Both the position numbers and the translations under genes were made by a program. This document shows, piece after piece, positions 4,098-64,000 of a DNA stretch of 64,000 nt; position 1 is the first letter of the stretch; each line of letters begins with the position of its first letter. Origin of the DNA: Salvator merianae (Eukaryota; Chordata; Lepidosauria; Squamata; Teiidae). Location of the stretch: positions 132,663,598 to 132,727,597 of the forward strand of contig QVOM02000034.1 in assembly GCA_003586115.2 (NCBI GenBank), in the 5' to 3' direction. The notes under the pieces were generated by a model, which did no database searches, had not been told where the DNA came from, and saw nothing but the letters and a program-made list of their open reading frames with translations.

Positions 4098-4308
4098 GGC
4101 TGTGATCACACAAAGCAAAAGAAGCATCACTGAGGTGTCTTATTGAAGGCTCTGAGGTGGGATTGTTCACACACCAGTCTGCCCCTCCCTCTCTCATGAA
4201 CATTCTGTGCTAGAAAAGGTGGATTAGAGAAGCGTGGGACACAAGGACCACGCACTACAGTCACTGAGACACTTCCAAGTAGCCCTTTGGTTATGTCTGA
4301 ACACCAGC
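4098..4308. mobile_element. Small TIR element (MITE), second copy, opposite orientation
   Basis: This is the reverse complement of the 21506-21719 element. Both contain a block reading approximately CACACACCAGTCTGCCCCTC and another reading CTAGAAAAG-TGGATTAGAGAAG. The ends are GGCTGTGATCACACAAAG on the left and, on the complement, GCTGGTGTTCAGACATAAC on the right. No clear target duplication remains, consistent with an older copy. Confidence 0.7.
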
Positions 4309-21505: not shown

Positions 21506-21719
21506 GGCTGTGTTCAGACATAACAAAAGGGGTGACATGAAGCGCCTCATAGAGACAGTGTGTGGCACTCATGATCTGAAGTCTTCTCTAATCCATCTTT
21601 TCTAGCATAGAACATTCATGAGAAAGGGGAGGGGCAGACTGGTGTGTGAATAATCCCACCTTGAAGCCATCTTTGAACCACCTCAGGGATGCTTTTTTTT
21701 GTTGTGTCTGATCACAGCC
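21506..21719. mobile_element. Small TIR element (MITE), 214 bases
   Basis: The left end GGCTGTGTTCAGACATAAC and the complement of the right end GGCTGTGATCAGACACAAC form terminal inverted repeats of about 25 bases. TCA flanks both sides as a 3-base duplication. The terminal motif resembles the ends of the longer Harbinger-like elements in this window. It has no coding capacity. A second, inverted copy lies at 4098-4308. Confidence 0.75.
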
Positions 21720-30857: not shown

Positions 30858-32237
30858 GGGTGCAGTCCGACATTGTAAATTTAATCTGTATCAGAAGTGT
30901 AGGAGGACTTAGTTTGTGTTCCAGTCTTTTAACAGGGATTGAGTTTGGACTTGCTCGTTCTCACACTGACGTTTCCTGTGCTTGGCACTGGGAAACTGTG
31001 CTTTTTCTATCTCCACCCCTCACCAAATTCCTCTCCCTGGGCAGTCAGTGATTGACTGCAGTCCCAGTGCTCAAAACTTGAATTTGAGTGGGCAGGTCAA
31101 GCTCCACCCTCTGTATTTCCCTGCTGTCACATCAGAACATGGATTCCCTGAGTGGTGTTTCTGATATTTCGTCATTTGCTCCTTTTCCCCCTCCAGCCTG
31201 TATCTACCCAAGCAGAACTTCGATACCACATCTACCACATAATAAAGCTTCTTAAAGGGCAGATAGTGATTTCTGCTCCTTTGCAATTTCACTTTTGCAC
31301 AATTGCACAATTTCAGAGTAGTGTAAAAGCAGGGAAAGGTCTGTGAAGAGGGGGAAACGTATGTGAGGCTCCATAATTGTGATAGTGAAGTTAGTGGCCA
31401 GCAAATAGACTCCGCCTCTCTTCCCCCCGAGACATCCACAGCAGCATATGTCCCACTATGTAGCTGTGTGGTGCCGATGGCAAAATTGATAGTGAGCGGG
31501 TTATTTGTTGGGGAAAGAGGATTACATGTCCAAACAGGTGCACTGTTTCAAATTAAAACACTCTGATGGCGGTGTGCTGGAGACATACAACTTGTCTGCC
31601 CCCTGAAATTGCTTGAGATCAGGAGCTGCATTTAAACTTGCCTTGGCTTAATGTTACTGTTGTGCTGTCACATTTTTGTGCAAAAGTGAGGGAAAGGGTC
31701 CCAGACGGTGGGAGAAGGAGGAGCAACCAGGAGCAAGAAATGCATTTGGAACTGCATTGCCCATCCCATCCCACTGTTTTCTCCACATGGCCAGATGGCC
31801 ATGGTACCCTCCCTCTGTAGCGGGCAGCTCGCTGCAAACTGCGTCACAGCTTGAAATTAGCTGTAGCACTGTGGTGGTTTTGCACAAAAGTCTATAAACC
31901 TACTTTGTTTAATTAACAGACAGAAGTGGAGGAAGCCTTTAATTTCTTCCTGACAGTACTGAACACAACAAAGTCCATCATTGGATGGCAGGAAATGGGG
32001 AGCCATCCCTCTGCACATCCCCCCAAAAGTACGGTCCCTCCCAAATAATTGAAAGTAAAGTAAAGTAAAACAGGCTAGTGATCTGAAGCGGCTTGAGAAC
32101 TCATTAAATCTGATTGCAAAATAGTCCCGATTTCGGCAATTTAGTCCAGAAAAACTATGGAAAGGCAAAATCATGTTGGGCCAGCAGGAACTGAAGACGG
32201 CCTGTAAACTGATTAAATGCTGTGTCAGAACACGCCC
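30858..32237. mobile_element. Harbinger-like TIR element, copy 1 (1380 bases)
   Basis: The ends are GGGTGCAGTCCGACATTG and, on the complement, GGGCGTGTTCTGACACAG, flanked on both sides by ATA (a 3-base duplication). The interior aligns by eye with 61213-62243 along its length, in the same orientation; for example both carry the CTTGCTCGTTC-CCACACTGA-type block near the left end and GACGGCCTGTAAACTGATT near the right end. It is about 350 bases longer than copy 2, and CpG sites have mostly decayed to TpG/CpA. It lies in the last TNR intron. Open frames inside it are not supported as genes. Confidence 0.75.
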
Positions 32238-43058: not shown

Positions 43059-43210
43059 AATCCATCCACCACCGTCAGTGATCATATCGCAGTAGACTTG
43101 CACTCTCTGGCTGAGATCTCCATTAAGATAGATGGTATAAACACCACTCATTGTGTCACCATTCATCAAATGCTGGGCACAATCCTGAGGGTTCATAAAC
43201 ACACGACCTC
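43059..43210 (-). CDS. TNR: TNR exon: start of the fibrinogen-like domain
   Basis: The exon is 152 bases: 2 bases finishing a Gly codon and 50 codons from [10 protein letters not shown] to DGGGWI. It includes the first cysteine of the fibrinogen-related fold (QDCAQ), the GVYTIYLNG segment, the second cysteine (VYCDM) and the family signature DGGGWI. The acceptor is TTTTGCAG. The donor GTAAGTG falls after the Ile codon (phase 0), and the next exon opens with Val-Phe to complete WIVFQRR. The C-terminal globe of tenascins binds cell-surface and matrix partners (family knowledge). Confidence 0.97.
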
Positions 43211-59443: not shown

Positions 59444-61074
59444 TTCCAAAAGGGCTAGAAAACACTTTTCAAAAATCATAATTGGAAGTCATACTATGTA
59501 CTGTTGTTTCTTCCTTCCTTATGTTTCTCTCATCATTTTGACAGTCAGAGTTGCTGTATTGGAAGGTAAAACATGCAGCTGGTGGACAGACTGCAGCACA
59601 GACATACCCAAAACATCTCATCTATGTCTGGGGTCTCCATAGGGGGTGCATAGAAAAGAAAGGGGTTGTTGTGGTTGCATGGGGAGGGGTTGTAATTCAC
59701 CACTGAAAAAGACACCTCTGCATTTCCATTTTAAAACATGTAGATGTCATTTCCAGTGGCCAATTGCAGAAGCCAATTGAAATCACACCCTGCAAAAATG
59801 GCACCTCCAAAGGTAATTGATTTCGAAATAGACAGTGTGACTCTAGAAGGAGCCTGTTGCTACCATAAATGGAGATGTGGTGGCAGGGGGTATCTTCTTG
59901 GGTGGTGGTGGGCACTTCCTTTTGTAAGTGGAGATTTGATTTATATCTAAGCAATTCTCAAGTAGAGGATTAGGCCAGCACATGAGTGTTTCAGAAGAGG
60001 AATTGTAGTGGAAAAAGACACTGGAAAATTAGCAAAGAGATGAGGTGTGGTGTGTGTCTCTTTTTATTCTATGTACATAATCTGAAGCAGAGATTCTGTA
60101 TCTTTACGTCTCTCTGTCTTATTCAGGAATTGTGAGCTGTTACAGTTAGCTGTGCTTAGGTAACCTTTCCCCCCACCACTTGTTCTTGATTTCCATCCAC
60201 TACTTCCTTGCTCTTCCTTAGCCACAAGACTTGTAAGCAAGTGCACTTGACCGCTGCCCATTATCTACAAAAACTGGTCAGTTTCAAAGAGCACATTAGC
60301 ACAGACCTGCTTAGGAGGTGCAGTGTGCCTGCTGGTTTGAGAGGTCGTCTGCCGTCATTACTGGGCTTCCTGGCACAAAATCAATGCCAGACTTTTTATT
60401 CTGTTTTAGTCTTATCTTTTTCATATGTCAGCCAATTTTGTTTTTGTCTTATATAATTGCTTTTTTGTTCTTTGTCTCACATTTCTTTAGAATGAACTTA
60501 TCTGCGGGGTGCTTGATTGCCTCTGAATCCACAAGAACTTGGGCCAGAAAGGTTGTAGTAAAACAGATCTTTAGCCCAAGGGCCATACTCACTCTTTGCC
60601 AACCCAAAGGGAGCCACTGCTACATGTCAGCAGTGGACCTGGTGAAAACTGGTACGTGCACCCCATGTTCTTTCATAGATACATATTCACATTAATCTAA
60701 TAACTTTGGCTGGGAAGGCATATTTTAATGTCTCTCCCCATTTATTTTATACATTATGTATTTTATAAATTATTCAAGCGCTAATTTTCCTTCAAAGACC
60801 CTCTTCTTTATTTTATGAGGAAGGTTGGGCTGAGATGCCCAAACACAGTAGGAAGACCACTAACCCTTCTTCTGACAAATAACCAGGTCGGCATAAGAAG
60901 TAAAGGAACTGCCAAAATCATTTGAGATGCATATCCTTTCCTTGATTTTCTGTGCCAGCTGCCTCTGCTACTCGACTTCAACATTAACCAGTAGCATTTT
61001 TCTAATTAACCTACTGTGCCTTATGGTCCTCTGTCCGTGCCCTGCTGGGACCTACACACCAAGCATACACATAC

Positions 61075-61194
61075 CTGTATCGTGTGTGACCACAATGACA
61101 TAATTCTCAACTTCAACCATTGGCGGATCCCACTTCAACAGAGCCTCTGTTGGGGTGATATTTATGGCAGTCAAGCTTTCTGGATTATCCATGG
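61075..61194 (-). CDS. TNR: TNR exon: first half of the penultimate FN3 repeat
   Basis: This 120-base exon carries 2 bases of a split codon, 39 whole codons and 1 base of the next split codon. The protein starts MDNPESLTA and ends [10 protein letters not shown]. The core Trp of an FN3 B strand is seen in LLKWDPP, and the NIT that follows is a possible glycosylation sequon, weakened by a Pro after it. The acceptor is CTTTTTGCAG just above 61194 and the donor is GTATGTG just below 61075. The frame joins the next exon in phase 1 with no loss. Only 18 bases of ordinary intron separate the exon from a transposable element that begins at 61213. The next upstream exon is not in the window. Confidence 0.95.
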
Positions 61195-61212
61195 CTGCAA
61201 AAAGGACATAAA

Positions 61213-62243
61213 GGCCGCGGTCGGACATCGTCAATGTAATCCGTATCAGAAGAGTACACGCAGTGAATTCGTCTTCTGGTCGTTCCCACAGTTACAGTTT
61301 AACACGGAGTCAATTCGTACTTGCTCGTTCCCACACTGATATTTCCCGTGCTTGGCAGTACCCTTTCTGCCTCCACCCCTCGTCAAATTCTCCTCCCTAT
61401 GCAGTCAGCGACTGGCTGCAGTCCCAATGTTCAAACCTTGACGTCACAGGGTCGGGAAAGTCAAGCTCCGTTCTCCTATGTCCCTGCTGCTACTCCAGAA
61501 CAGGGATTCACTTGGCAGCGTTACTAGGCATTCGCCATTTGCTCCTCCCTGCAGCCTCTGTCTACCGAGGCAGAACTTAAAAACTACGTTCACTTTAAAA
61601 CTATGACCTTTAAGCTTTTTAAAGTTCTTTTGAAATGCACATGAGAGCTCCCCTGCTGATGCACTTTAACGCAACTGCGCAATTTAAAAGTAGCGGGAGA
61701 GGTCCATAACAAAGGGAAAAAGTGGGGAGGGAACATGGGGGGGGGGTCGACTATTTTTAACTGTGTGCTGACCACGGCAAAACTCCAAACAGGCACAGTT
61801 TATTTTTTCCTTTAAAGAGCAGACGGAAGTGGAGAAAGCCTTTAATTTCTTCCTGGCAGGACCGCAGCTTAGTGAAGAAGGAGGACGATTTCTTTTCCCC
61901 TGGCAGCGAGGGAAGGGGGGATAATGGAGGCAGAGGAAACTAATGTGCTTCCTGCCCACCTACAAAGTCTGTCATTGGACGGCACAAAATGGGGATCCCT
62001 CCCTCTGCATGCCCCCCAAAACAGTACGGTCCCTCTCAAATAATTGCTTTCCCCGTGCCCACAGCACAAAGTAAAGCGCGCTAGCGATCTGGAACGGCTT
62101 GAGAGTTCATTAAATCTGAAGACAAAGTAATCCGGATTTCGCCAATTTAATCCATAAAAATTACGGAACGGCAAGATCATGTTGGGACAGCGGGAACTGA
62201 AGACGGCCTGTAAACTGATTAAATGCCGTGTCAGAACGCAGCC
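61213..62243. mobile_element. Harbinger-like TIR element, copy 2 (1031 bases)
   Basis: The element begins GGCCGCGGTCGGACATCG and its complement at the other end begins GGCTGCGTTCTGACACGG. These are imperfect terminal inverted repeats of roughly 35 bases. Both sides are flanked by AAA, a 3-base target duplication. The length of the direct repeat and the terminus resemble PIF/Harbinger-type non-autonomous elements, but no transposase is present. It is clearly the same family as 30858-32237. Many CpG pairs survive, which suggests a younger copy. It abuts a TNR 3' splice site. Confidence 0.75.
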
Positions 62244-62451
62244 AAAGTCATTACAAGGAAGTTATCCTAGTAGAGATGGTTGATGATCCAGAATTGGTGG
62301 GGTAATAAGGAGGCGTATCATGATGATTTTCACAACGCATTTAATAGCAACAAATCTCATTCTGACCTGCAGAGAGTACAACTGGGTTTGAAACAAGGGA
62401 AAGCACTGTGCCAATATGTTTCACTGTTCATCCCTGTTTGCTTCCAGACTA

Positions 62452-62886
62452 GGGGCCTACTTGCAGTTACCTGGTATTGAACATTTGGGTGTTCACTGGA
62501 CAAGACTGTCTGCATGCCACTGCCACTGTGTCCCAGAGTGCTTACAGTTGCTCCTGGATGTTACTACTGGTGGACAACTAAATTGCTATCCACAGCTTGA
62601 CTGGGAGCAGCTAATGAGCTCTGGTCAGTAGTGTTTGCACCCTTTTCTGGGTGCCACAGTGCAAGTGTGCATGGCAGCATGGCTGGGACTGTGCAGTTGC
62701 ACACCACATCCCAATTGCCATGGCAATGTCTGCCCTGGTTGGGCCATCCATACTACAAGTGCTTGTGGTCTGTTTTGGGTCTTTTTCAACCCTTGGATTG
62801 CAGATATCTGCCTCCCTGCCTGATCCTTACCGGCCTGATATGGTATTATTATACCATACCAGGCCATTAGGTGTGAACAGGCCCAA
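62452..62886. mobile_element. TIR element with GGGCCT ends, copy B
   Basis: The left end GGGGCCTACTTGCAG continues to CCTGGTA, and the complement of the right end reads GGGCCTGTTCACACCTAATG then CCTGGTA. This gives a terminal inverted repeat of about 28 bases with gaps. It is related to copy A at 44340-44802. A short palindrome (TGGTAT-ATACCA arms) lies near the right end. No coding capacity. Confidence 0.55.
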
Positions 62887-64000
62887 GGCACGATACATGA
62901 ATAAGTCTAAAGGAGCAATACAAATCCCCTAAAATATGGAACAAAATGTAGCACACTTCTAGTATTTTTAATATAGCTAATTTTAATTCATAATTCAAGT
63001 GAAATTCTGAAGAAGGTATTTGAATCACAATCCAATATGGGAGAAGCAAATAAAGGGTTGACTTTTGTTTTGTTATGTTTTGGCATCAAATGGATTTTGA
63101 GGGAGAGAATTTGAAATTTTCTCCCCTGGCTTCTCCAGATTCTATTCCTTTATTCATGTTTCTCCCACCCCAGCTCCAATACTGGAAGATCATTAACTGG
63201 GAGGGAAACTTGCTTTTACTTGTGGAATCATAGATCTTTGCTTACATTTTAATGCCAAAAAAGATTCCCAACTATGTTAAACTTATAAACGTACATAAAT
63301 ACATGGCTGCCCAATCATATTCAAAAGTCCCCTATTCTTATTAATATAAAGTGTATTATAAGGTATAACAGTATCAGGCTGGTAAATGAGCCATCTGTGG
63401 GTTGAAATGCTCCACTCCCTCTATAGAGATAGGAGGCACACTGGTCACATGACAGGACCTTCCTGGCCTCTGAAAACCTCACAGCAGTGGAACAAAAGTT
63501 CTGCAGTTGTGAGATTGCCATCTGTTGCAATTTAGTGATGAATTGGAAATGGTTCCAAAACTCAGCCATTTTAGGTCCGATCCCTAGCAATTAACCTCCT
63601 CTGCTGCTGTCACTCTACACAGTGGTGTAGGAGGTGAATAGGATTGTGATATTTCCTTGGAATTGTTTTTTTGCACCATGTGTGCAGGATATTTTCAAGG
63701 ATAAATTTTATGGTTTGGGGTGTGTGACCTGCAGGTGGCTATGTTTGCCCACCAGACCCCACTGCCCTTGAGGAGGGTCCATCTTCCATTGTTTGGATGC
63801 AAACCTAAAGATAGTTAAATAACTGGATATCCAGCACGTTACTAGTTTGCTGGCACAGTTTTGCTTACTGGTGGCATCTGATGAGGTCCTGGCAACTTCC
63901 AGGGGCTTGCCAAATGCATTAAAAAATCCAAAATCAAAGAAATGGGGTGTGCATGTGGTGAGCTCCTGGAAGTTGCTGTTGAAGTGATGCCATAGCACCT
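62887..64000 (-). other. TNR: TNR intron sequence, no exon recognised
   Basis: This stretch should be intron between the 61075-61194 exon and the next upstream TNR exon. No FN3-like frame with splice sites is visible on the minus strand, so the upstream exon lies beyond the window edge. Confidence 0.6.

What the first reader, a model, noticed from the sequence alone, without database searches (positions are those of the whole stretch)
61195..61245. Transposable element inserted 18 bases upstream of a TNR 3' splice site
Between the TNR exon at 61194 and the left end of the 1031-base TIR element at 61213 only TTTATGTCCTTTTTGCAG remains. Branch points usually lie 18-40 bases upstream of the exon. 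The natural one must therefore have been displaced by about 1 kb, and a new one supplied by the element's terminal repeat. On the TNR strand the TIR contains TTGAC with its A about 36-37 bases from the exon and CCGAC about 26 bases away, both usable. This would be an exapted branch site in a conserved, in-frame exon of a constitutive FN3 repeat, or else a site of exon skipping. Skipping this 120-base exon keeps frame (phase 1-1) but would leave half an FN3 repeat.
Basis: partly seen in the sequence, partly recalled or inferred. Interest (0 to 1): 0.78.

Follow-up and report, generated by a model that had tools for sequence, protein, structure and literature searches.

The report
Jumping gene replaced a splicing branch-point
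In a lizard or snake genome a young, non-coding DNA transposon has landed 18 bases before a conserved exon of the brain gene tenascin-R, pushing the original branch-point region about 1 kb away, and the transposon's own end carries good substitute branch-point motifs; whether they are used needs RNA data.

Summary
Observation confirmed. A 1031-bp non-autonomous DNA transposon (61213-62243, TSD AAA, PIF/Harbinger-like) lies 18 nt upstream of a 120-nt TNR exon (61194-61075, minus strand). The own genome gave 39 other long matches at 94-97% identity; 24 of 36 fetched copies have identical 3-bp flanks. Joined flanks show an ordinary intron end with branch-like sites at -20, -23 and -34, now 1054-1068 nt away. 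The copy's first 169 bp equal the family majority, so the motifs came with the element and did not evolve in place. Flipped, 35 of 36 copies would give no such motif and an AG at about -20. The copy is young (0.65-0.98% non-CpG divergence). TNR's last nine exons are intact. I judge an element-supplied branch point most likely; exon skipping, the native A at -15 and cryptic acceptors are not excluded. Transposon-borne branch points are already known from reporter experiments.

The parts
61075..61194 (-). TNR exon, 120 nt, phase 1-1, first half of the penultimate FN3 repeat
61195..61212 (-). Remaining intron end TTTATGTCCTTTTTGCAG: AG, polypyrimidine tract, residual A at -15 (61209); includes one TSD copy
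61210..61212 (.). Target-site duplication AAA, left copy
61213..62243 (.). 1031-bp non-autonomous DNA transposon, PIF/Harbinger-like
61213..61244 (+). Left terminal inverted repeat (imperfect)
62214..62243 (-). Right terminal inverted repeat
62244..62246 (.). Target-site duplication AAA, right copy
61230..61234 (-). Candidate branch site TTGAC, A at 61231 (-37)
61245..61249 (-). Candidate branch site CTGAT, A at 61246 (-52); the nine-mer TTCTGATAC also stands at -25 of the TNR acceptor at 43210
61220..61224 (-).
61197..61272 (-). AG-free zone upstream of the acceptor AG
62247..62251 (-). Displaced native candidate ATGAC (A at 62248; -20 in the joined-flank sequence, now 1054 nt away)
62261..62265 (-). 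Displaced native candidate ATAAC (A at 62262; -34 in the joined-flank sequence, now 1068 nt away by arithmetic)
30858..32237 (.). Second, diverged relative of the element (1380 bp, TSD ATA) in the last TNR intron

Best explanation
A young PIF/Harbinger-like MITE jumped into a TTT site between the branch-point region and the AG of a TNR intron. It left the polypyrimidine tract and AG in place (shown) and moved the native branch-point candidates about 1 kb upstream (shown by joining the flanks). The terminus that faces the exon happens to be a ready-made 3' intron end: no AG for 78 nt, with TTGAC at -37 and CTGAT at -52 (shown). The spliceosome most likely now branches on one or both of these, -37 first because of its distance, and the exon stays included (inferred). 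The motifs are ordinary family sequence, so the insertion was tolerated on arrival and not repaired later (shown for sequence, inferred for fitness).
For: Element and borders. Motif ranks among all A of the window's minus strand: -52 top 2.7% by motif score and top 0.8% by U2 pairing; -37 top 3.0% and 11.2%. AG-free zone 78 nt; 2.3% of 20000 random window segments reach 76. Acceptor score 7.34, inside the 3.32-10.1 range of the nine TNR acceptors and the best of 74 AGs in the last ~1150 nt. In the predicted fold the -37 A is unpaired with probability 0.98 and the -52 A with 0.76. Family: 30 of 36 copies have a YTNAY at -37, 31 of 36 at -37 or -52. Gene intact: nine exons, one frame of 406 residues to a stop, canonical sites; 1 of 9 residues found only in the window, against six squamates, lies in this exon. 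Human data: 88% of mapped branch points at -15 to -40 (PMC9636908, section 8). In a reporter, a new TGA branch point at -60 was used and allowed efficient splicing, and one MIR insert used -60 and -79 (PMC7969005, section 18).
Against: No RNA evidence. A random window segment supplies a YTNAY 30% of the time, so a motif is not proof of use. Three of the nine TNR acceptors and the joined-flank site have no YTNAY in the zone, so the motif test is neither necessary nor sufficient. [quoted passage not shown] The stretch after -37 is 67% pyrimidine against a published median of 76% (PMC10655562, section 5). An Alu close to an acceptor causes missplicing (PMC3951367). The predicted fold buries the acceptor (0.87). 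Left-end conservation in this copy is not significant (P about 0.05, window chosen after the fact).
Confidence: 0.68

Rival explanations
1. The insertion weakens the acceptor and the exon is partly or mostly skipped, removing half of an FN3 repeat in frame.
For: An Alu 26 bp upstream of BMPR2 exon 6 increased the branch-point distance and gave transcripts without the exon (PMC3951367). Skipping keeps frame. The copy is young, so a mildly harmful allele could persist.
Against: Good motifs and an AG-free zone; no excess of changed residues in the exon (weak for a young insertion). None of the 120 listed proteins (of 2165 hits, nearly all named tenascin-R) lacks more than five residues of the exon, which speaks for a constitutive exon in other species, not for this one; low-scoring skipped forms would be missed.
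Confidence: 0.14
2. The remaining native A in TTTAT at -15 is the branch point.
For: TTTAT fits TNAY; motif score in the top 10%.
Against: Only 2% of human major-intron branch points lie at -3 to -15 (PMC9636908, section 9); U2 pairing no better than half of all A.
Confidence: 0.05
3. The native branch point is still used: the element's inverted repeats pair in the RNA, loop the element out and bring the old branch point next to the AG.
For: TIR-TIR duplex -25.4 kcal/mol against -13.7 +/- 3.3 for 1000 mononucleotide shuffles, lowest -25.5.
Against: In the 1123-nt fold the first TIR bases pair with the other TIR with probability about 0.12; the right end pairs with the acceptor itself instead (0.87). 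AGs stand in the element 34, 41 and 52 nt past the displaced ATGAC.
Confidence: 0.05
4. An AG inside the element is used, giving an in-frame 26- or 27-residue extension (AG at -78 or -81) or a longer exon.
For: Both extensions are open and in frame. An element AG scoring 5.36 lies 705 nt upstream.
Against: The AGs at -78 and -81 are not among the best eight of 74 scored; the real acceptor is best at 7.34.
Confidence: 0.05

Closest known systems
MIR insertions in OGDH intron 4a reporters (PMC7969005; passages and section 18 read)
   Same: A transposon put next to branch point or 3' splice site can add or remove usable branch points; orientation, distance and copy sequence matter.
   Different: Engineered SINE inserts in a cell reporter with distant branch points, nearly all of which repressed splicing; here a natural DNA transposon in a TNR intron.
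AluYb8 26 bp upstream of BMPR2 exon 6 (PMC3951367; passages and section 22 read)
   Same: TE lands between branch point and acceptor and lengthens that distance.
   Different: Rare pathogenic allele with missplicing; here the allele is in an assembled genome with an intact gene, and the TE end carries good motifs.
MIR/AluSp exon of BLOC1S2 (PMC6822395; passages read, among them from the abstract)
   Same: TEs supply branch-point sequence.
   Different: It makes a new exon; here an ancient exon has its branch-point region replaced.
PIF/Harbinger group of PHIS transposons (PMC4482050; passages and section 5 read)
   Same: 3-bp TSD, most often TTA/TAA across copies; short TIR beginning with G.
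   Different: No transposase found or tested; this copy's TSD is AAA, not TWA.

Membership tests
PIF/Harbinger (PMC4482050) | TSD 5'-TWA-3' | tested here: inconclusive
   3-bp TSD firm: 24 of 36 identical; 12 of the 24 are TTA or TAA, 14 of 24 TNA; this copy has AAA
PIF/Harbinger (PMC4482050) | Short TIR, first base A or G | tested here: met
   About 30 nt, begins GG
PIF/Harbinger (PMC4482050) | DDE transposase and Myb/SANT protein in autonomous relatives | not tested
   Longest listed ORF overlapping the element 107 aa, partly outside it; ORFs not scanned, no autonomous relative sought
TE-supplied branch point | TE lies between native branch region and acceptor | tested here: met
   Joined flanks
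TE-supplied branch point | Consensus branch motif in the TE within the AG-free zone at a usual distance | tested here: met
   TTGAC -37 (usual distance), CTGAT -52 (unusual distance)
TE-supplied branch point | Lariat junction in the TE and exon inclusion | not testable with these tools
   No RNA data
Distant-branch-point exon (PMC1431707; passages read) | AG exclusion zone of 100 nt or more, the paper's cut-off for 'large' | tested here: not met
   78 nt

The most novel reading that the evidence does not exclude
The left terminus of this MITE family is a portable, orientation-specific branch-point cassette: facing an exon it supplies a 78-nt AG-free zone and branch motifs, while the other terminus supplies a decoy AG. 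Insertions just upstream of acceptors would then survive in one orientation, and a transposon family would have replaced the branch points of many ancient exons without changing the proteins.
Probability: 0.25. Interest if true: 0.68.

Novelty: new variant of a known kind. Interest (0 to 1): 0.46.

Why it matters
If the element's branch point is used, this is a datable natural experiment: a core splicing signal of an ancient exon swapped by a jump, with nearly identical copies elsewhere to serve as controls. It would show how introns take insertions in their most sensitive 40 nt, where known human cases are pathogenic, and it gives a clear orientation test across the family's other copies.

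Tried and rejected
Post-insertion refinement of the branch motif: comparing with the 31-kb relative alone suggested that TTGAC arose in place, but the first 169 bp equal the family majority, so this was dropped. Old insertion: the 24% non-CpG difference to that relative is not this copy's age; CpG o/e of 0.73 against 0.17 for the window and the 36-copy comparison show a young copy. Selection on the exon-side end: 0 of 20 substitutions in the first 169 bp against 101 of 727 in other copies, P about 0.05 with a window picked after the fact (Fisher 0.09; first 80 bp 0.39); not claimed. Viral-contig hit L001: a 21-nt chance match. Empty allele in the assembly: a 213-nt query of exon and left flank has a single place, so no second haplotype was seen; the right-flank search did not complete. 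Other exon-side insertions: the right-end pattern gave 2 places, neither with a convincing exon after it by eye; the left-end pattern did not complete, so the orientation test is open. No Rfam match at gathering score in 60000-64000. Placement within squamates is unresolved.

Full report
What is there. The window is the 3' part of tenascin-R on the minus strand: nine exons with canonical sites give one open frame of 406 residues to a stop, with two FN3 stretches and a fibrinogen domain. The closest named proteins are squamate TNRs: of 406 residues Phrynosoma shares 383, Anolis sagrei 378, Pogona 374 (the script printed 407 as the total). The 120-nt exon 61194-61075 codes the first half of the penultimate FN3 repeat. 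Of the 120 listed proteins (best of 2165 hits; nearly all named tenascin-R) none lacks more than five residues of it; the list holds only the best scores, so forms that skip it could be missing.

The element. Window 61213-62243 is a 1031-bp element with imperfect terminal inverted repeats of about 30 nt and flanks AAA/AAA. The genome that holds the window (2.05 Gb) gave 39 other long matches at 94-97% identity; 40 of 7905 first-look candidates were scored, so the copy number is not known. I fetched 36 of the 39 (left out: one beside partial copies, two truncated). Of these 24 have identical 3-bp flanks, most often TTA (7) or TAA (5); mismatched pairs agree in 9.8%; none of 36 agrees over 4 bp. 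This fits PIF/Harbinger (TWA, short TIR beginning A or G; PMC4482050, section 5), but no transposase was tested and this copy's TSD is AAA, so I write 'PIF/Harbinger-like'.

Age. This copy differs from the 36-copy majority at 9 of 923 non-CpG sites (0.98%), 6 of them private (at most 2 of 36 other copies; 0.65%), and at 11 of 106 CpG sites. With a recalled neutral rate near 1e-9 per site and year this means roughly 6-10 million years; the rate comes from no call. The high CpG content (o/e 0.73 against 0.17 in the window) agrees with youth.

What the jump did. Joining the flanks gives ...GGATAACTTCCTTGTAATGACTTT|ATGTCCTTTTTGCAG, an ordinary intron end with branch-like ATGAC at -20, GTAAT at -23 and ATAAC at -34. 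These now lie 1054, 1057 and 1068 nt (arithmetic) from the exon. What is left is the polypyrimidine tract, the AG and one A at -15.

What the element brings. In the orientation found, no AG occurs for 78 nt, and YTNAY motifs stand at -37 (TTGAC) and -52 (CTGAT). By motif score they are in the top 3.0% and 2.7% of all A; CTGAT is also in the top 0.8% by U2 pairing, CCGAC (-27) only in the top 17% and TTTAT (-15) in the top 10% (frequencies recalled). Among the nine TNR acceptors six have a YTNAY in the zone, this one included, and three do not; the joined-flank site has none either. Of 20000 random window segments 30% offer a YTNAY and 2.3% an AG-free zone of 76 nt or more: the motif is not rare luck, the long clear zone is. 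In humans 88% of branch points lie at -15 to -40 and 68% of introns have several (PMC9636908, section 8), so -37 is the first choice and -52 the better motif at a less usual distance.

Pre-made, not evolved. The first 169 bp are identical to the family majority. The other copies, placed in thought next to the same 18 nt, have a YTNAY at -37 in 30 of 36 and at -37 or -52 in 31 of 36; the other five have an AG at about -20, which by eye comes from a CpG change in four (L022, L029, L035, L039) and another change in one (L021). Flipped, 35 of 36 have no YTNAY and an AG at about -20. So orientation matters: this copy landed in the one that leaves a usable intron end. Whether this is general is untested, because the left-end genome pattern did not complete.

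Against. There is no RNA. The exon's lack of decay (1 of 9 window-only residues) says little for a young insertion. An Alu 26 bp upstream of BMPR2 exon 6 causes missplicing (PMC3951367). In the OGDH reporter UAA, but not UGA, inserts induced intron 4a splicing, though both worked alike in independent introns, and all MIR inserts but one repressed splicing (PMC7969005, section 18). RNA folding gives a stable TIR-TIR duplex (-25.4 against -13.7 +/- 3.3, lowest of 1000 shuffles -25.5), but in the full fold it has only about 0.12 probability and the right end pairs with the acceptor (0.87); the -37 A is unpaired (0.98). Pairing at the acceptor could hinder splicing; it is a weak prediction for a 1.1-kb RNA.

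Known or new. That TEs can bring or remove branch points was shown in reporters (PMC7969005, section 18) and proposed for BLOC1S2 (PMC6822395, passages). In the listings of my searches (titles and abstract starts, not full papers) I saw no natural case in which a TE replaced the branch point of an ancient exon, but the library lacks most subscription journals. I therefore call it a new variant of a known kind.

Noticed in passing
window 30858-32237: A diverged 1380-bp relative of the element (TSD ATA) in the last TNR intron; non-CpG difference 24% over aligned blocks.
   Followed up: partly
window 21506-21719 and 4098-4304: A 214-bp element with a related TIR (GGCTGTGTTCAGACA) and a 79% relative at 4.1-4.3 kb; the 21.5-kb copy sits between near-identical stretches (TCAGTTTGATGAAGAT / TCAGTTTGATTGAAGAT) longer than a 3-bp TSD.
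   Followed up: no
window 61213-62243: The 1-kb bin at 61-62 kb, inside the element, is the only one of 64 with CpG o/e above 0.45: a sharp CpG-rich patch in a gene body.
   Followed up: no
window 61195-61275: Use of the element AGs at -78 or -81 would add 26-27 residues in frame without a stop.
   Followed up: partly
window 62237-62243 and 61193-61199: The element's right end GGCTGCG can pair with the TNR acceptor TTGCAG|CC in the RNA (predicted probability about 0.87).
   Followed up: no
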